Shown here: piece by piece, positions 51,536 through 56,011 of the stretch
Numbering within the stretch: position 1 is the first letter of the stretch
Layout of the letters: each line of letters opens with the position of its first letter
Source of the DNA: a virus
Length of the DNA stretch: 56,011 nt
Virus record (IMG/VR): IMGVR_UViG_3300021197_001910
Location: 1 to 56,011 of that record
Strand: one strand, 5' to 3'
The notes under the pieces: model-generated
Seen by the model: the letters and a program-made list of their open reading frames with translations, nothing else
Databases searched by the model: none
Told to the model about the DNA's origin: nothing
Translations under genes and position numbers: made by a program

Positions 51536-52486
51536 TTACCAATGAAAGTTGTTTTTATAGTATTCAACTATTGAATCTATTTCGTTATCGAATATCCTGC
51601 TGGGTTCCCACCCTAAGGATCGTAGTTTATCGTCGTTTAGTGAATACCTCACATCTTGTCCTGGGCGTGTGTGATCTAGGTTTGTATAGTCCTCTATGTT
51701 CACAGAGCGGTTAAAATAAGATGTTAGGATTTTTTGTACAGTTTCAAGATTCTTTTGTTCAAAGCCGCCGGCCACATTATATATCTCGTTAACAGTCCCG
51801 CTGTCTATGATAGTGATTACGGCTGAGGCGGTATCGGCTGCATGCAACCAGTTTCTCACTGGCTCCCCTCTATCATGGAGGCGAATCTTCTTGTTACGCT
51901 GCAGTAGCTTGATGGTCAGGGGCACTAGCTTTTCCCAGTGTTGATATATGCCATAGTTGTTCGTGGGACGAAGGATCAGATACTTCAGTCCGTAGGTGCG
52001 GGTCCAAGCCTTGATTAGCATGTCTGATGAGGCTTTTGAGGCTGAGTATGGATTACTCGGGTGGAGAGGATCTGTCTCTACGTGGGCGCCTGCAGTGATG
52101 TCTCCGTAGACCTCGTCTGTGCTGAAATGGAATAAAATAGGTGGTTCGCAAATGTTTGTGGGCTTTTGTCGTATCAGGTCTAAGAGGTTTTTAACACCGT
52201 TAACATTGGTACGAATAAAGTCATCGCTCTCAATGATACTGTTTCCCACATGCGTCTCAGCGGCTGTGTTAATAACATAATCACAATCTGGAAGGCTGGT
52301 GAGTGTTGCAATATCAGCTTGCTCAAATGTGAATAAGGGATTTTCATTAAACTCCTGAATCAAGCCGGTATTAGCTGCGTATGTGCACTTATCTATGCCA
52401 TAAACACGCCAACCGCGTTCCAAGCAGGCTCGGGTTACATACGACCCAATAAAGCCTAGGCACCCTGTGACTGTAACTAACCTCAT
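51536..52486 (-). CDS. dTDP-glucose 4,6-dehydratase-like SDR (RmlB type, 316 aa)
   Basis: An extended SDR. The Rossmann motif is VTGCLGFIG near residues 6-14, the acidic-base triad is in HFSTDEVYGD (Thr123, Asp124, Glu125) and the catalytic Tyr-Lys pair is PYSASK (Tyr147, Lys151). STDEVYG is the signature of nucleotide-sugar 4,6-dehydratases such as RmlB. It would make a 4-keto-6-deoxy sugar on a nucleotide; the nucleotide (dTDP or other) is not fixed by eye. At 316 aa it is shorter than RmlB (about 350). It follows the cupin gene directly and ends the sugar gene cluster. Confidence 0.87.
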   Translation of the reverse strand: MRLVTVTGCLGFIGSYVTRACLERGWRVYGIDKCTYAANTGLIQEFNENPLFTFEQADIATLTSLPDCDYVINTAAETHVGNSIIESDDFIRTNVNGVKNLLDLIRQKPTNICEPPILFHFSTDEVYGDITAGAHVETDPLHPSNPYSASKASSDMLIKAWTRTYGLKYLILRPTNNYGIYQHWEKLVPLTIKLLQRNKKIRLHDRGEPVRNWLHAADTASAVITIIDSGTVNEIYNVAGGFEQKNLETVQKILTSYFNRSVNIEDYTNLDHTRPGQDVRYSLNDDKLRSLGWEPSRIFDNEIDSIVEYYKNNFHW

Positions 52487-52867
52487 CTAATCACCCTTTT
52501 TAATTCTATGACTGTCTGTGTCAAAATGCTGCGTCGAGAACTCAAAGAGTTCCGTGTCTTCGAGCGCAATCATTTGGTGACGAAGTCCTCGATAAACATG
52601 AAAGTTATCGCCGCGCTCTAATATAAGCTCATGGGCAGAGTTAATATCATCTCTATCGGAATATTTTACCAAAACTTTACCCGATTGAATATAAAACACT
52701 TCATCCTTCAGCTCGTGATAATGCCACGAGCAACGTTTGCCCTTTACAAAATATAACAGCTTACCACAATATTCTTCAGTGTTGACAATCCACTTCTCAA
52801 ACCCCCAGCCCTTAGGGACAAAGGTCATTGGGAGGTCGGGGCTTTGGTCTAAATCCTTTACAGTCAT
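52487..52867 (-). CDS. Cupin-fold protein, sugar-pathway type (126 aa)
   Basis: The cupin core has motif 1 HYHELKDEVFYIQSGKVLV (His49, His51, Glu56) and motif 2 with GLRHQM (His97), a metal-binding cupin pattern. Position between two SDR genes and a WGFEKWIVNTEEYCGK start suggest a sugar isomerase or epimerase-type cupin, as in mannose-6-phosphate-isomerase-like cupins. The substrate is not identifiable. It is 12 bp from the SDR gene upstream. Confidence 0.82.
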   Translation of the reverse strand: MTVKDLDQSPDLPMTFVPKGWGFEKWIVNTEEYCGKLLYFVKGKRCSWHYHELKDEVFYIQSGKVLVKYSDRDDINSAHELILERGDNFHVYRGLRHQMIALEDTELFEFSTQHFDTDSHRIKKGD

Positions 52868-52879
52868 ATATCGTTCTCT

Positions 52880-53818
52880 CTAAAAGTATTTGGCGTTATG
52901 ATAATGATCATCAAAATTCATCACCTTTAATACTTCCAGGATCTCGTCGATCCCCTCTTCCATAGAGATTTGAGCATTAAAGCCTAGCTGATTGATTTTA
53001 TCATAACTGACAATATAATTTCTCTTGTCGGCGTCTTCACCAATATCCTCGAAGTGTACAAATGCGTCTGTCTTTTCGGCTATCATATTGCAAACTGCTT
53101 CTTTACTGTAGTTCATGTGGTCCGAACCAACATTATACACATTATCCATCATATCTGAAAGGTTGTTAATGGCAAAGATAAACGAATCGGCGATGTCGGA
53201 CACATGAATAAACGTTCTCATAAAGTGCTTCTCATAGACAATCAAATACCCATCTCTTAAGCACTTATTGGAAAAATCATTAACCAGTAGATCAAGGCGC
53301 ATGCGGGGCGCGACGCCAAAAGCGGTAGCGAATCGATACGCTACGGCATTGCCGCGTTCCATCAAAAGGTATTCTGCCTCCGTCTTAGTTTCTCCATATA
53401 GACTCAAAGGATTAAGAGGAGTCTCTTCGGTGCATACATCTGTAACAACCCCATAGTTGCTGCCGGTAGAGCCGTAGAGAATAGGCTGATCTGCCGTGCA
53501 TGCGTTAATCAAGTTAATGGTTCCGTCTACATTTACCTCCCGGGCCATTTCGGGATTCATCCTGCACGCGGGAAAGCCCACTATGGCGGCTAAGTGGATT
53601 ACAATATCCTGGCCAGTGACGGCTTCTTGAAGCTTTTCAAATTCTCGAATGTCACCGCGAATAAAATTAAAGTTCTTATGCCTAAAAAAAGGAATGATTT
53701 GATTTCCACCGTGGAGCAACATATCAAATACAGTAACTTCATGACCTAAATCTAGTAATTTAGGAACCAACGTGGTGCCAATATAACCAGCACCTCCTGT
53801 AATAAAAATCTTAGACAT
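52880..53818 (-). CDS. NAD-dependent nucleotide-sugar epimerase/dehydratase (312 aa)
   Basis: An extended SDR with GGAGYIG at residues 8-14, Ser117/Thr118, and the Tyr141-x3-Lys145 pair in LYGETK. Its overall pattern (VIHLAAIVGFPACRMNP, TFIHVSDIADSF, VYNVGSD) is that of GalE-like epimerases and related 4-reductases. It could act at C4 or C3 of a nucleotide sugar in the cluster, but the reaction cannot be told from sequence alone. Encoded directly after the DUF962 gene. Confidence 0.85.
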   Translation of the reverse strand: MSKIFITGGAGYIGTTLVPKLLDLGHEVTVFDMLLHGGNQIIPFFRHKNFNFIRGDIREFEKLQEAVTGQDIVIHLAAIVGFPACRMNPEMAREVNVDGTINLINACTADQPILYGSTGSNYGVVTDVCTEETPLNPLSLYGETKTEAEYLLMERGNAVAYRFATAFGVAPRMRLDLLVNDFSNKCLRDGYLIVYEKHFMRTFIHVSDIADSFIFAINNLSDMMDNVYNVGSDHMNYSKEAVCNMIAEKTDAFVHFEDIGEDADKRNYIVSYDKINQLGFNAQISMEEGIDEILEVLKVMNFDDHYHNAKYF

Positions 53819-54103
53819 CTATATTCTCCTTAATAAAATATCTTTAAGCATTACCCAATCACAGGCTTTCGCCCAAAGAGGCTTAGACCAAGCGGCCGGG
53901 GTGTTTTTTTCAAAAAACATATGTCCGCTCCACGCAAAGGGGTAGACCACAAAGGGAGCAGCGAGTAAAAGAATCCAATACCCGGTGGATATCACCCACA
54001 CAATATAGGCGATTGTGGCGGCCTGTCCCAGGACATGCAGAAGCCTGTTCCAGGGATTCTGGTGAAGGGTTAGATAATGTTTATAGTAATCCTGAAAACT
54101 CAT
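53819..54103 (-). CDS. DUF962/Mpo1-like membrane protein (94 aa)
   Basis: The N-terminal HYLTLHQNPWNRLLHVLG (His9, His14, His23) and the later SGHMFFEKNTPAAW (His61, Glu65, Asn66) match the conserved motifs of DUF962/Mpo1-type proteins, and two or three hydrophobic segments lie between them. Yeast Mpo1 is an iron-dependent dioxygenase that shortens 2-hydroxy fatty acids. The family is usually longer (about 170 aa in yeast). It overlaps the ColD-like gene by 23 bp, so it is co-expressed with the sugar cluster. A lipid or envelope role is possible but not shown. Confidence 0.82.
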   Translation of the reverse strand: MSFQDYYKHYLTLHQNPWNRLLHVLGQAATIAYIVWVISTGYWILLLAAPFVVYPFAWSGHMFFEKNTPAAWSKPLWAKACDWVMLKDILLRRI

Positions 54104-55244
54104 GAAGCATCTCCTCTAAGGTGTCTAGTTCTGAATCAGTTATCAGATGATTGTTGCCGATGAAGAATCCATTTTCGTGTAGAAAATCCACATTCGCGGT
54201 GGTTTCAATGTCAAGGTCATAGTCTTTGAGAAAGGGCTGACGTAATAGGTTGCCACTACACAGAGGACGAGTTTCCACTCCACTCTCGCTTAAAAAGGAT
54301 TCGAGCTTTTCTTTTACTTCTCTTTGGTAACAGATAAACGGAAGACAAAAGCTACTGTTTCCCTCTTGAGATGGGATGTGAAATAGATCATAACTCTCAA
54401 TCATTCTTAAAAATCTATCATAAATTTCTTGGCGGCGGGCGATGCAAGCGTCAAGCCGAGGGAGTTGTGAAAGCCCCAGGACTGCATTGAGTTCCATGCT
54501 TCGGAAGTTATAGCCGTCCGTGACAAATAGAAACTGAGGGTGTACGTCGGGATATCTCTCTTTATACTCCTCGAACTTACCCCCTTGGGCTTCACGGGCC
54601 ATGCCATGGCTTCGCTTCATTTTCATAAGGTTAAATAGTTCATCGTCGTTAGTGCAAACAAATCCACCCTCAATAGTAGTCATGTGGTGCCCAAAATAAA
54701 AACTAAACGTTGAACCTTCGCTGAGAGTTCCGGCTTTTTGCCCCTTGTAGGTAGCGCCATGTGACTCACAAACGTCCTCCATGTAAACCGCGTCCGGGAG
54801 GATCTGTCGATAACTATCCATATCAGCAGGAATTCCAAATAGGTGGGTTACAAAGACTGCCTTAATATCAGGATGCTTAGTAGCGACGCTTTGTAAGTGT
54901 TCCAGGTCAAAGCCAAAGTTATTGCTATCAACATCGCAAAAGATAGGCTGTAGACCTAACTGTATAATAGGTGAAATGTTTGTCACCCAAGTCATGGCGG
55001 GTACCAATACTTTATCACCGGATTCAAGTCCATATTTCTCTTTGATCGCGGCGACGAGGAGAAGATTAGCTGTGCTCCCAGACGATACGAAGAGAGAGTG
55101 TTTGCAGCCGAGCCATTCAGACCACTGCCTCTCAAACTCCCTCACCTGTGGTCCATTAGTGAACCGATCCGTGGAAGTAATGAAATTAATCATCGCTTCT
55201 TTATCGGCTGCGGTGACGCAATCTTTCATAAGGGGCCAATACAT
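54081..55244 (-). CDS. PLP-dependent sugar 3-dehydratase, ColD/RfbH type, His replaces Lys (387 aa)
   Basis: A DegT/DnrJ/EryC1 fold, with SSGSTANLL near 54-62, PAMTWVTN near 82-89 and DVCESHGATYKG near 157-168. At residues 186-187 the sequence is GHHMTT-IEGG, where ordinary aminotransferases have K in S/x-x-K-x2-T-x-GEGG. His at this position is characteristic of PMP-dependent 3-dehydratases: ColD (GDP-4-keto-6-deoxymannose-3-dehydrase, colitose) and RfbH/E1 (CDP-sugar). The enzyme therefore probably removes a C3 hydroxyl from a keto-sugar and does not aminate. It overlaps the fcl-type gene by TAATG. See the finding for the colitose case. Confidence 0.9.
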   Translation of the reverse strand: MYWPLMKDCVTAADKEAMINFITSTDRFTNGPQVREFERQWSEWLGCKHSLFVSSGSTANLLLVAAIKEKYGLESGDKVLVPAMTWVTNISPIIQLGLQPIFCDVDSNNFGFDLEHLQSVATKHPDIKAVFVTHLFGIPADMDSYRQILPDAVYMEDVCESHGATYKGQKAGTLSEGSTFSFYFGHHMTTIEGGFVCTNDDELFNLMKMKRSHGMAREAQGGKFEEYKERYPDVHPQFLFVTDGYNFRSMELNAVLGLSQLPRLDACIARRQEIYDRFLRMIESYDLFHIPSQEGNSSFCLPFICYQREVKEKLESFLSESGVETRPLCSGNLLRQPFLKDYDLDIETTANVDFLHENGFFIGNNHLITDSELDTLEEMLHEFSGLL

Positions 55245-56011
55245 TATTGCTTCTCTCCCTGGCGGAGTGCCTCATATACTTTGAGCACTCCATCTCTAAA
55301 ACTTGTAAAACTAACCTCTCCGAGGCTTTCTATCATTCTATCACAACTAACATCTTTTCTAAACTGACCATCTGGTTTTGTTGCATCATAATCAATAGAC
55401 CAGTTTCCGTTGCCCAGAACATCCAAAGCCATAGTAGCCATTTGATGAATACTATAATTCTGACCGGGTGGTGCTACATTGAAAGATTCAGTAATGTTGC
55501 CTTCTACGACTCTTTTAATGACTGCTGCTAAATCGCCGCTGTACATAAACTGGCGCATTGGAGTCCCGCTGCCAAAGAGGGAAATCTTATTGTTTCCTTG
55601 GTCTTCTGCATCAATGATTTTTTTAATAAGTGCTGTAACAAAATGACTTTTATTAGAATTTTCAAAGTTGTCGTGTTCCCCGTAGAGGTTGCACGGAATA
55701 AGGTAACTATAGTCTAGTCCATACTGGTGACGATAAGCCTCAATCTGTACAGCCATACATCGTTTAGTATATGCATAACTAAAGTTGGCATTTGCAGGAG
55801 GACCCTTGTGAACATCCTCTTCAACCATCGGATAGGACGAGACCGTATCCGGATACATACATGTGCTCAAAACAGCAATGAATTTCTCAACTCCACACTG
55901 GTGAGCAGCCATAAGTGTATTAGTGTTTATTTGAATGTTCTCATCATAAAAAATCGCTGGATTTTGAATGTTTTCGAGGATTCCCCCCACACGAGCAGCA
56001 AGATGGATAAC
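55244..56011 (-). CDS. fcl: GDP-fucose synthase-type epimerase/reductase (Fcl/WcaG or ColC), 5' end cut by window edge
   Basis: The frame is open to the right edge and extends past the apparent GTG at 55990: the seven codons 55991-56011 read VIHLAAR, giving VIHLAARVGGI, the normal internal motif of this family. So the gene begins beyond the window. The rest follows the GMER/GDP-fucose synthase pattern: Ser-x-Cys-Met-Tyr-Pro near the catalytic Ser, SYAYTKRCMAVQ with Tyr-x3-Lys, CNLYGEHDNF, RQFMYSGDLA, and the family's TKPDGQFRKD substrate motif. Fcl makes GDP-L-fucose; ColC in the same family makes GDP-L-colitose. Given the ColD-like neighbour, ColC activity is possible. Stop overlaps the next start (TAATG). 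Confidence 0.9.
   Translation of the reverse strand, partial: VIHLAARVGGILENIQNPAIFYDENIQINTNTLMAAHQCGVEKFIAVLSTCMYPDTVSSYPMVEEDVHKGPPANANFSYAYTKRCMAVQIEAYRHQYGLDYSYLIPCNLYGEHDNFENSNKSHFVTALIKKIIDAEDQGNNKISLFGSGTPMRQFMYSGDLAAVIKRVVEGNITESFNVAPPGQNYSIHQMATMALDVLGNGNWSIDYDATKPDGQFRKDVSCDRMIESLGEVSFTSFRDGVLKVYEALRQGEKQ

What the first reader, a model, noticed from the sequence alone, without database searches (positions are those of the whole stretch)
54081..56011. Possible phage-encoded GDP-colitose (3,6-dideoxyhexose) module
A ColD/RfbH-type dehydratase with the diagnostic His sits directly beside a GDP-fucose-synthase-type SDR, and in colitose synthesis ColD and ColC (a GMER-family SDR) are exactly such a pair. 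The motifs and adjacency are seen in the sequence; the family assignments are established knowledge; the colitose interpretation is inference. Dideoxyhexoses are terminal O-antigen sugars and host recognition targets, so a phage that makes one could modify host LPS or its own virion. I am not aware of a phage case, but cannot search.
Basis: partly seen in the sequence, partly recalled or inferred. Interest (0 to 1): 0.65.

Follow-up and report, generated by a model that had tools for sequence, protein, structure and literature searches.

The report
Phage 3-deoxy-sugar genes, probably not colitose
This virus of bacteria carries a tight gene cluster for making an unusual sugar that lacks the oxygen at carbon 3; its relatives in other phages look like makers of colitose, but this one appears to use a different first enzyme and so probably makes a cousin of colitose, a variant so far made only in test tubes.

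Summary
Window 54081-55244(-) encodes a ColD-type PMP-dependent 3-dehydratase: ColD is the best PDB hit by sequence and by fold, and H186 aligns with catalytic His188. The RfbH/E1 Fe-S cysteines are absent. 55244-56011(-) is a GDP-fucose-synthase-family SDR with all five catalytic residues; its start lies beyond the edge, across an artefactual 10-N gap.

Colitose is the best reading for the relatives rather than for this phage. Of 74 distinct viral ColD-like genes, 63 sit beside GDP-mannose 4,6-dehydratase (Gmd), usually with a GMER and often a GT11 (cyanophages S-CAM7, ACG-2014f): a colitose-type gene set for which I found no paper. The window's gene lies in a small sister clade where Gmd is replaced by a relative of Cj1427, the GDP-manno-heptose C4-dehydrogenase (window 52880-53818, 40% identity, TM 0.94). 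No viral locus has both, and six records of this type lack Gmd. Cj1427 plus a C3-dehydratase makes GDP-3-deoxy-heptoses in vitro. Best reading: GDP-sugar, C4 oxidation, C3 deoxygenation, C5 epimerisation/C4 reduction, GT11 transfer; a 3-deoxy-L-sugar that keeps its 6-OH. Substrate (GDP-mannose or GDP-heptose) unresolved; no assay.

The parts
55244..56011 (-). GMER / GDP-fucose-synthase-family SDR (C3/C5-epimerase + C4-reductase); 5' end lies across a scaffold gap, full 305 aa, start at G000:56298
   Evidence: catalytic S99 C101 Y129 K133 H173 = E. coli GFS S107 C109 Y136 K140 H179 (residue roles in PMC7949155)
54081..55244 (-). ColD-type PMP-dependent GDP-4-keto-sugar 3-dehydratase, catalytic H186
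   Evidence: (phrog_3139)
53819..54103 (-). Mpo1-like (PF06127) 94-aa protein, overlaps the ColD frame by 23 bp; role unknown; present in L004 and L119, absent in L005/L120
52880..53818 (-). Cj1427-like NAD-dependent GDP-sugar C4-dehydrogenase: proposed source of the 4-keto substrate for the 3-dehydratase
   Evidence: PDB 6vo6/6vo8, 269 bits, next best 99; TM 0.94, 40% id
52487..52867 (-). small cupin (phrog_7851); sugar-phosphate or sugar isomerase-like, substrate unknown
51536..52486 (-). RmlB-like dTDP-glucose 4,6-dehydratase family SDR; probably a separate sugar branch
   Evidence: (299 bits, below TIGR01181 cut-off 365)

Best explanation
A phage operon for a GDP-3-deoxy-sugar that keeps its 6-hydroxyl. 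The Cj1427-like enzyme (52880-53818) oxidises C4 of a host-supplied GDP-mannose-type sugar (GDP-mannose or GDP-D-glycero-manno-heptose). The ColD-type enzyme (54081-55244) uses PMP, regenerated from glutamate, to remove the C3 oxygen. The GMER-family SDR epimerises C5 and reduces C4 to a GDP-L-sugar (from GDP-mannose: 3-deoxy-L-galactose, i.e. 'colitose with a 6-OH'). A glycosyltransferase, probably the GT11 protein about 5 kb away, puts it on host surface glycan or the virion. Shown: gene content, family membership, catalytic residues, operon-like spacing, partner swap. Inferred: reactions, order, substrate, product, destination.
For: (1) 52880-53818 is by far closest to Cj1427: 269 bits against 99 for the next PDB hit; AF2 model TM 0.94 to 6vo6/6vo8, 40% id, next best about 0.84. 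(2) Viral ColD-like genes: 63 beside Gmd, 6 beside this dehydrogenase, 5 neither, none with both (Fisher p 2.5e-6, rows not independent). (3) The window's ColD lies in a starred 8-row clade, 7 of 8 dehydrogenase-partnered, sister to a 67-row viral clade of which 63 are Gmd-partnered; the partner label needs 4 changes on the whole tree against 37 shuffled. (4) No Gmd in six records of this type, about 460 kb; the same query finds it in Gmd-type records. (5) Among the 78 nearest bacterial loci scored, 44 have the dehydrogenase near a ColD-like gene and 61 the heptose kinase HddA; L115 is a near-complete GDP-heptose operon with L-2-hydroxyglutarate oxidase, which fits Cj1427 reducing alpha-ketoglutarate (PMC10680097). 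(6) Cj1427 + HS:5 C3-dehydratase + reductases make GDP-3-deoxy-heptoses in vitro (PMC10680097). (7) The dehydrogenase-ColD pair usually has an epimerase next to it: GMER (window, L004, L005, L119), RmlC-like (L182), GME-like (L039); none recognised in L122.
Against: No enzyme of this phage was assayed. The viral dehydrogenases are sister to, not inside, the Cj1427/heptose-operon group, so their substrate may differ. No heptose or GDP-mannose synthesis gene was found in the records of this type, so the host must supply the substrate. L121, in the same ColD clade, has Gmd and a window-type GMER, so the 3-dehydratase and GMER may accept 6-deoxy substrates too. All six records are fragments. Only about seven dehydrogenase-type loci of this clade were found.
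Confidence: 0.52

Rival explanations
1. GDP-colitose: a Gmd of the host (or in an unsequenced part of the phage genome) supplies GDP-4-keto-6-deoxymannose, ColD and the GMER convert it to GDP-L-colitose, and the Cj1427-like enzyme belongs to another pathway.
For: ColD is the closest solved relative and its substrate is GDP-4-keto-6-deoxymannose. 63 of 74 viral relatives sit beside Gmd. L121, same ColD clade, has Gmd and a window-type GMER. L069 (Planctomycetota) has GT11, Gmd, window-type GMER and ColD together. GMER keeps the C/H epimerase pair of hexose GFS.
Against: No Gmd in six records of this type; Gmd and the dehydrogenase exclude each other next to viral ColD; the dehydrogenase is present in every window-type locus. 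The SDR does not group with ColC.
Confidence: 0.27
2. A dTDP-linked 3,6-dideoxy sugar: the RmlB-like dehydratase at 51536-52486 makes the 4-keto-6-deoxy sugar that the ColD-like enzyme uses.
For: An RmlB-like gene (299 bits to TIGR01181) is in the same gene run in the window, L004 and L119.
Against: RmlB-like is absent next to ColD in L122 and L182 and only 29% similar in L005; the ColD and GMER families act on GDP sugars (established for ColD and GFS); the solved 3-dehydratase for another nucleotide (E1, CDP) scores far lower.
Confidence: 0.09
3. A mixed cassette in which the neighbouring SDRs and the 3-dehydratase serve different sugars, the GMER making GDP-L-fucose or GDP-L-galactose alone.
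For: The record's cluster is large and varied (UDP-glucose dehydrogenase-like, GT4, GT11, sulfotransferase, formyltransferase, second DegT fragment). The nearest GMER reference is human GFUS.
Against: GMER, ColD and dehydrogenase are adjacent or nearly so and co-conserved in L004, L005 and L119 at 57-75% identity; GMER and ColD frames overlap.
Confidence: 0.12

Closest known systems
GDP-colitose pathway of E. coli O55/O111 (Gmd, ColD, ColC; GT11 WbgN)
   Same: ColD-type dehydratase with catalytic His; GMER-family SDR just upstream in the same order; a GT11 gene in the cluster
   Different: No Gmd or ManC in the record; ColD identity 33%; SDR not in the ColC branch; Cj1427-like dehydrogenase present instead
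C. jejuni GDP-heptose pathways (Cj1427 C4-dehydrogenase; HS:5 C3-dehydratase; C4-reductases), PMC10680097 and PMC10440746
   Same: C4-dehydrogenase plus PLP/PMP C3-dehydratase logic; that combination makes GDP-3-deoxy-heptoses in vitro
   Different: In C. jejuni the HS:5 dehydratase works with a 4,6-dehydratase; the epimerase is a separate protein; no heptose-synthesis genes found in the phage
Cyanophage cassettes Gmd-GMER-ColD-GT11 (S-CAM7, ACG-2014f)
   Same: Same ColD family (52-55% id) and GMER family, GT11 in the cluster
   Different: Gmd present there; GMER only 32-33% identical to the window's; no Cj1427-like enzyme next to ColD
Cyanophage S-SCSM1 GDP-fucose gene set (PMC9602691)
   Same: Phage-encoded Gmd, GDP-fucose synthase, GDP-mannose 3,5-epimerase and fucosyltransferases
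   Different: The passages read describe fucose and galactose sugars, not a ColD-type dehydratase or colitose

Membership tests
ColD-type PMP-dependent GDP-4-keto-sugar 3-dehydratase | DegT fold with ColD as nearest solved relative | tested here: met
ColD-type PMP-dependent GDP-4-keto-sugar 3-dehydratase | catalytic His in place of the PLP-binding Lys | tested here: met
   H186 aligns with His188; the HH...EGG motif is in all 154 tree rows
ColD-type PMP-dependent GDP-4-keto-sugar 3-dehydratase | turnover of GDP-4-keto-6-deoxymannose | not testable with these tools
   needs an assay
RfbH/E1 CDP-sugar 3-dehydratase | cysteines of the [2Fe-2S] cluster (CYCAPGCDNTC stretch in 3bcx) | tested here: not met
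   the aligned stretch MAREAQGGKFEEYKERYP has no Cys
DegT sugar aminotransferases (PseC, ArnB, perosamine synthase) | PLP-binding Lys at the active site | tested here: not met
   His at that position
GMER / GDP-fucose synthase family | SYK triad and Cys/His epimerase pair | tested here: met
   S99, C101, Y129, K133, H173; roles from PMC7949155
ColC | groups with ColC rather than other GMERs | tested here: not met
   own starred branch with human GFUS and L069 nearest; ColC is long-branched and elsewhere
Cj1427-type GDP-sugar C4-dehydrogenase | closest to Cj1427 in sequence and fold; T/Y/K active-site residues | tested here: met
   T118, Y141, K145 invariant in 17 rows
Cj1427-type GDP-sugar C4-dehydrogenase | falls inside the Cj1427/heptose-operon group | tested here: not met
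   viral proteins lie outside as a sister set
GDP-colitose pathway | GDP-mannose 4,6-dehydratase encoded with it | tested here: not met
   absent from the 82.6-kb record and five relatives, all fragments

The most novel reading that the evidence does not exclude
The ColD-type step exists in phages in two versions. A widespread one (Gmd-GMER-ColD, often GT11) makes GDP-colitose. The window's version swaps Gmd for a Cj1427-type C4-dehydrogenase and makes a GDP-3-deoxy-L-hexose ('6-hydroxycolitose') or 3-deoxy-heptose, a pathway so far assembled only in vitro; many bacterial heptose operons carry the same trio.
Probability: 0.4. Interest if true: 0.72.

Novelty: new variant of a known kind. Interest (0 to 1): 0.55.

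Why it matters
Phages that modify host surface sugars or their own particles are known, and cyanophage sugar genes are usually annotated as fucose or generic epimerases. If right, deoxy- and dideoxy-sugars are common phage products, the ColD subfamily's natural substrates extend beyond 6-deoxy sugars, and a ready set of genes exists to test whether these sugars alter phage adsorption or superinfection. It also points to bacterial operons that may make 3-deoxy-heptoses, so far seen only as in vitro products.

Tried and rejected
RfbH/E1 and ordinary aminotransferase readings of the 387-aa protein (His present, Fe-S Cys absent). A real frameshift in the GMER gene (the exact 127-bp duplicate around 10 N shows an assembly artefact). 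Gmd elsewhere in the record (only the RmlB-like gene, 24%, answers). Heptose kinase, GmhA and ManC in the window-type records: only a weak SIS hit in G008, and a weak ManC-like hit in the Gmd-type G007. Specificity positions between Gmd- and dehydrogenase-partnered ColDs: six candidate sites (15, 84, 106, 195, 361, 368), none clearly tied to the partner. Literature for phage colitose: none found in the held open library, which misses most subscription papers. A first regex count of the catalytic His failed and was replaced by the HH...EGG count. A CxC..C pattern used to look for Fe-S cysteines also hits a dozen Gmd-type viral rows whose positions I did not check; the window row is not among them.

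Full report
What is there. The window is bases 1-56011 of an 82,592-bp IMG/VR virus record, a tailed phage: portal protein nearest Microcystis phage Mel-JY01 at 43%, with terminase and baseplate families. At 51-60 kb of the record, a run of - strand genes lies end to end: radical SAM, NAD synthase-like, UDP-glucose dehydrogenase-like, GMER-family SDR, ColD-like, Mpo1-like, Cj1427-like SDR, cupin, RmlB-like, with gaps of -23 to +12 bp. This looks like one operon. The window edge falls at a 10-N scaffold gap with an exact 127-bp duplicate on both sides, so the GMER gene is very probably whole in nature and 305 aa long.

The 387-aa protein. It is a ColD-type 3-dehydratase by sequence (ColD 2e-65, E1 3e-40), by fold (TM about 0.90, ranks 1-12) and by the catalytic His, H186 against ColD His188. 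The E1/RfbH iron-sulphur cysteines are missing. It belongs to a known phage family, phrog_3139 'aminotransferase' (8e-125).

The SDR beside it. GMER family, with S99, C101, Y129, K133 and H173 at the positions of E. coli GFS S107, C109, Y136, K140 and H179. In GFS the Cys/His pair epimerises C3 and C5, and the heptose reductases DdahC and MlghC lack the Cys (PMC7949155); the GMERs of the bacterial heptose operons below keep both. On a 99-row tree it forms a starred branch with L004, L119, L120 and L121; the nearest reference is human GFUS; it is not with ColC or Fcl. Several of these branches are long, so finer placement is unsure.

Relatives in phages. Cyanophages S-CAM7 and ACG-2014f carry Gmd, GMER, ColD-like and GT11 in a row (S-CAM7 Gmd 63% identical to E. 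coli Gmd). Across viral contigs, 63 of 74 distinct ColD-like genes have Gmd within 4.5 kb, most with GMER, many with GT11 or a ManC-like fragment. Some pair Gmd-ColD with a GDP-mannose 3,5-epimerase-like SDR. This is a full set for GDP-colitose or a close relative. I found no paper that describes it, though the library is incomplete and the genes themselves are deposited, one annotated as 'CDP-4-keto-6-deoxy-D-glucose-3-dehydrase'.

Why the window differs. Its ColD sits in an 8-row clade (support 95) of which 7 have, next to ColD, not Gmd but a relative of Cj1427. No viral locus has both. Six records of this kind lack Gmd; the same query finds Gmd in the Gmd-type records. The window's copy (52880-53818) matches Cj1427 at 269 bits with the next solved protein at 99, and its AF2 model (pLDDT 92) fits 6vo6/6vo8 at TM 0.94. 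Cj1427 oxidises C4 of GDP-D-glycero-manno-heptose, passing the electrons to alpha-ketoglutarate (PMC10680097). Such an enzyme would hand ColD a 4-keto sugar that still has its 6-OH.

Bacterial parallel. The nearest bacterial ColD-like genes (mostly 36-42% identical) largely lie in GDP-heptose operons: HddA-like in 61 of 78 loci, HddC 33, GmhA 24, the C4-dehydrogenase in 44. L115 reads HddA, GMER, two transketolase halves, ColD-like, HddC, GmhA, C4-dehydrogenase, L-2-hydroxyglutarate oxidase, GmhB (several below the curated cut-offs). The oxidase fits a dehydrogenase that makes 2-hydroxyglutarate. This set was chosen by similarity to the window's protein and is not a census. In vitro, Cj1427 followed by the HS:5 C3-dehydratase and a reductase gave four GDP-3-deoxy-heptoses, which the authors call novel (PMC10680097).

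Which substrate. The window-type records hold no HddA and no ManC, and GmhA gives only one weak hit, so the host provides the GDP sugar. The closest chromosomal relative, a Legionellales MAG with the pair C4-dehydrogenase-ColD and a GME-like SDR (L039, ColD 64% identical), has ManC but no HddA and no Gmd match above 31% in the 1.5 Mb searched. That leans towards GDP-mannose, but the MAG is incomplete. The viral dehydrogenases are sister to the heptose group, not inside it. I leave hexose or heptose open.

Verdict. Colitose is a good reading for the wider phage family and a possible one here if the host supplies the Gmd product. The better-supported reading for this phage is a 3-deoxy sugar made through a C4-dehydrogenase. 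Reactions, product and destination are inference; no function was tested.

Noticed in passing
G000:56012-56021 (just past window end), L002 5885-6148: 10-N scaffold gap flanked by an exact 127-bp duplicate: the two sides overlap and the assembly failed to merge them, so the GMER gene looks broken but very probably is not.
   Followed up: yes
L006-L021, L126, L147, L157, L166, L175: Viral cassettes Gmd - ColD-like - GDP-mannose 3,5-epimerase-like SDR, without a GMER next to ColD; the epimerase may replace the GMER.
   Followed up: partly
L115 1225-10220 and similar loci L068, L076, L100, L102, L103, L116, L117: Bacterial operons with HddA, HddC, GmhA, GmhB, transketolase- or dehydrogenase-E1-like TPP protein pairs, ColD-like, Cj1427-like and L-2-hydroxyglutarate oxidase (L115). 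The TPP enzymes could supply sedoheptulose or add a carbon branch to the sugar.
   Followed up: partly
window 53819-54103: Mpo1-like (2-hydroxy fatty acid dioxygenase family) gene inside a sugar operon, overlapping ColD by 23 bp and conserved in L004 and L119; perhaps linked to 2-hydroxyglutarate from a Cj1427-type reaction, pure speculation.
   Followed up: no
G000:57404-66429 (L002 7404-16429): Further surface-sugar genes: NAD synthase-like, B12-binding radical SAM, GT11, 207-aa DegT fragment-like protein, methyltransferase, GT4, formyltransferase, sulfotransferase.
   Followed up: partly
L003 8953-16397 (G000:74953-82397): Seven tRNA genes among metabolic genes, an aminotransferase-like ORF, a PhoH-like ORF nearby and a complete-looking DnaK-like 608-aa ORF at the record's end.
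   Followed up: no
L039: A Legionellales MAG contig carries the phage-type pair (Cj1427-like, ColD 64% identical to the window's) with a GME-like SDR and a sugar transferase, apparently in a chromosomal polysaccharide cluster; a possible donor or recipient of the phage genes.
   Followed up: partly
L182 7158-7628: RmlC-type epimerase directly after a Cj1427-like/ColD-like pair in a viral contig, resembling the separate epimerase of the C. jejuni heptose pathways.
   Followed up: partly
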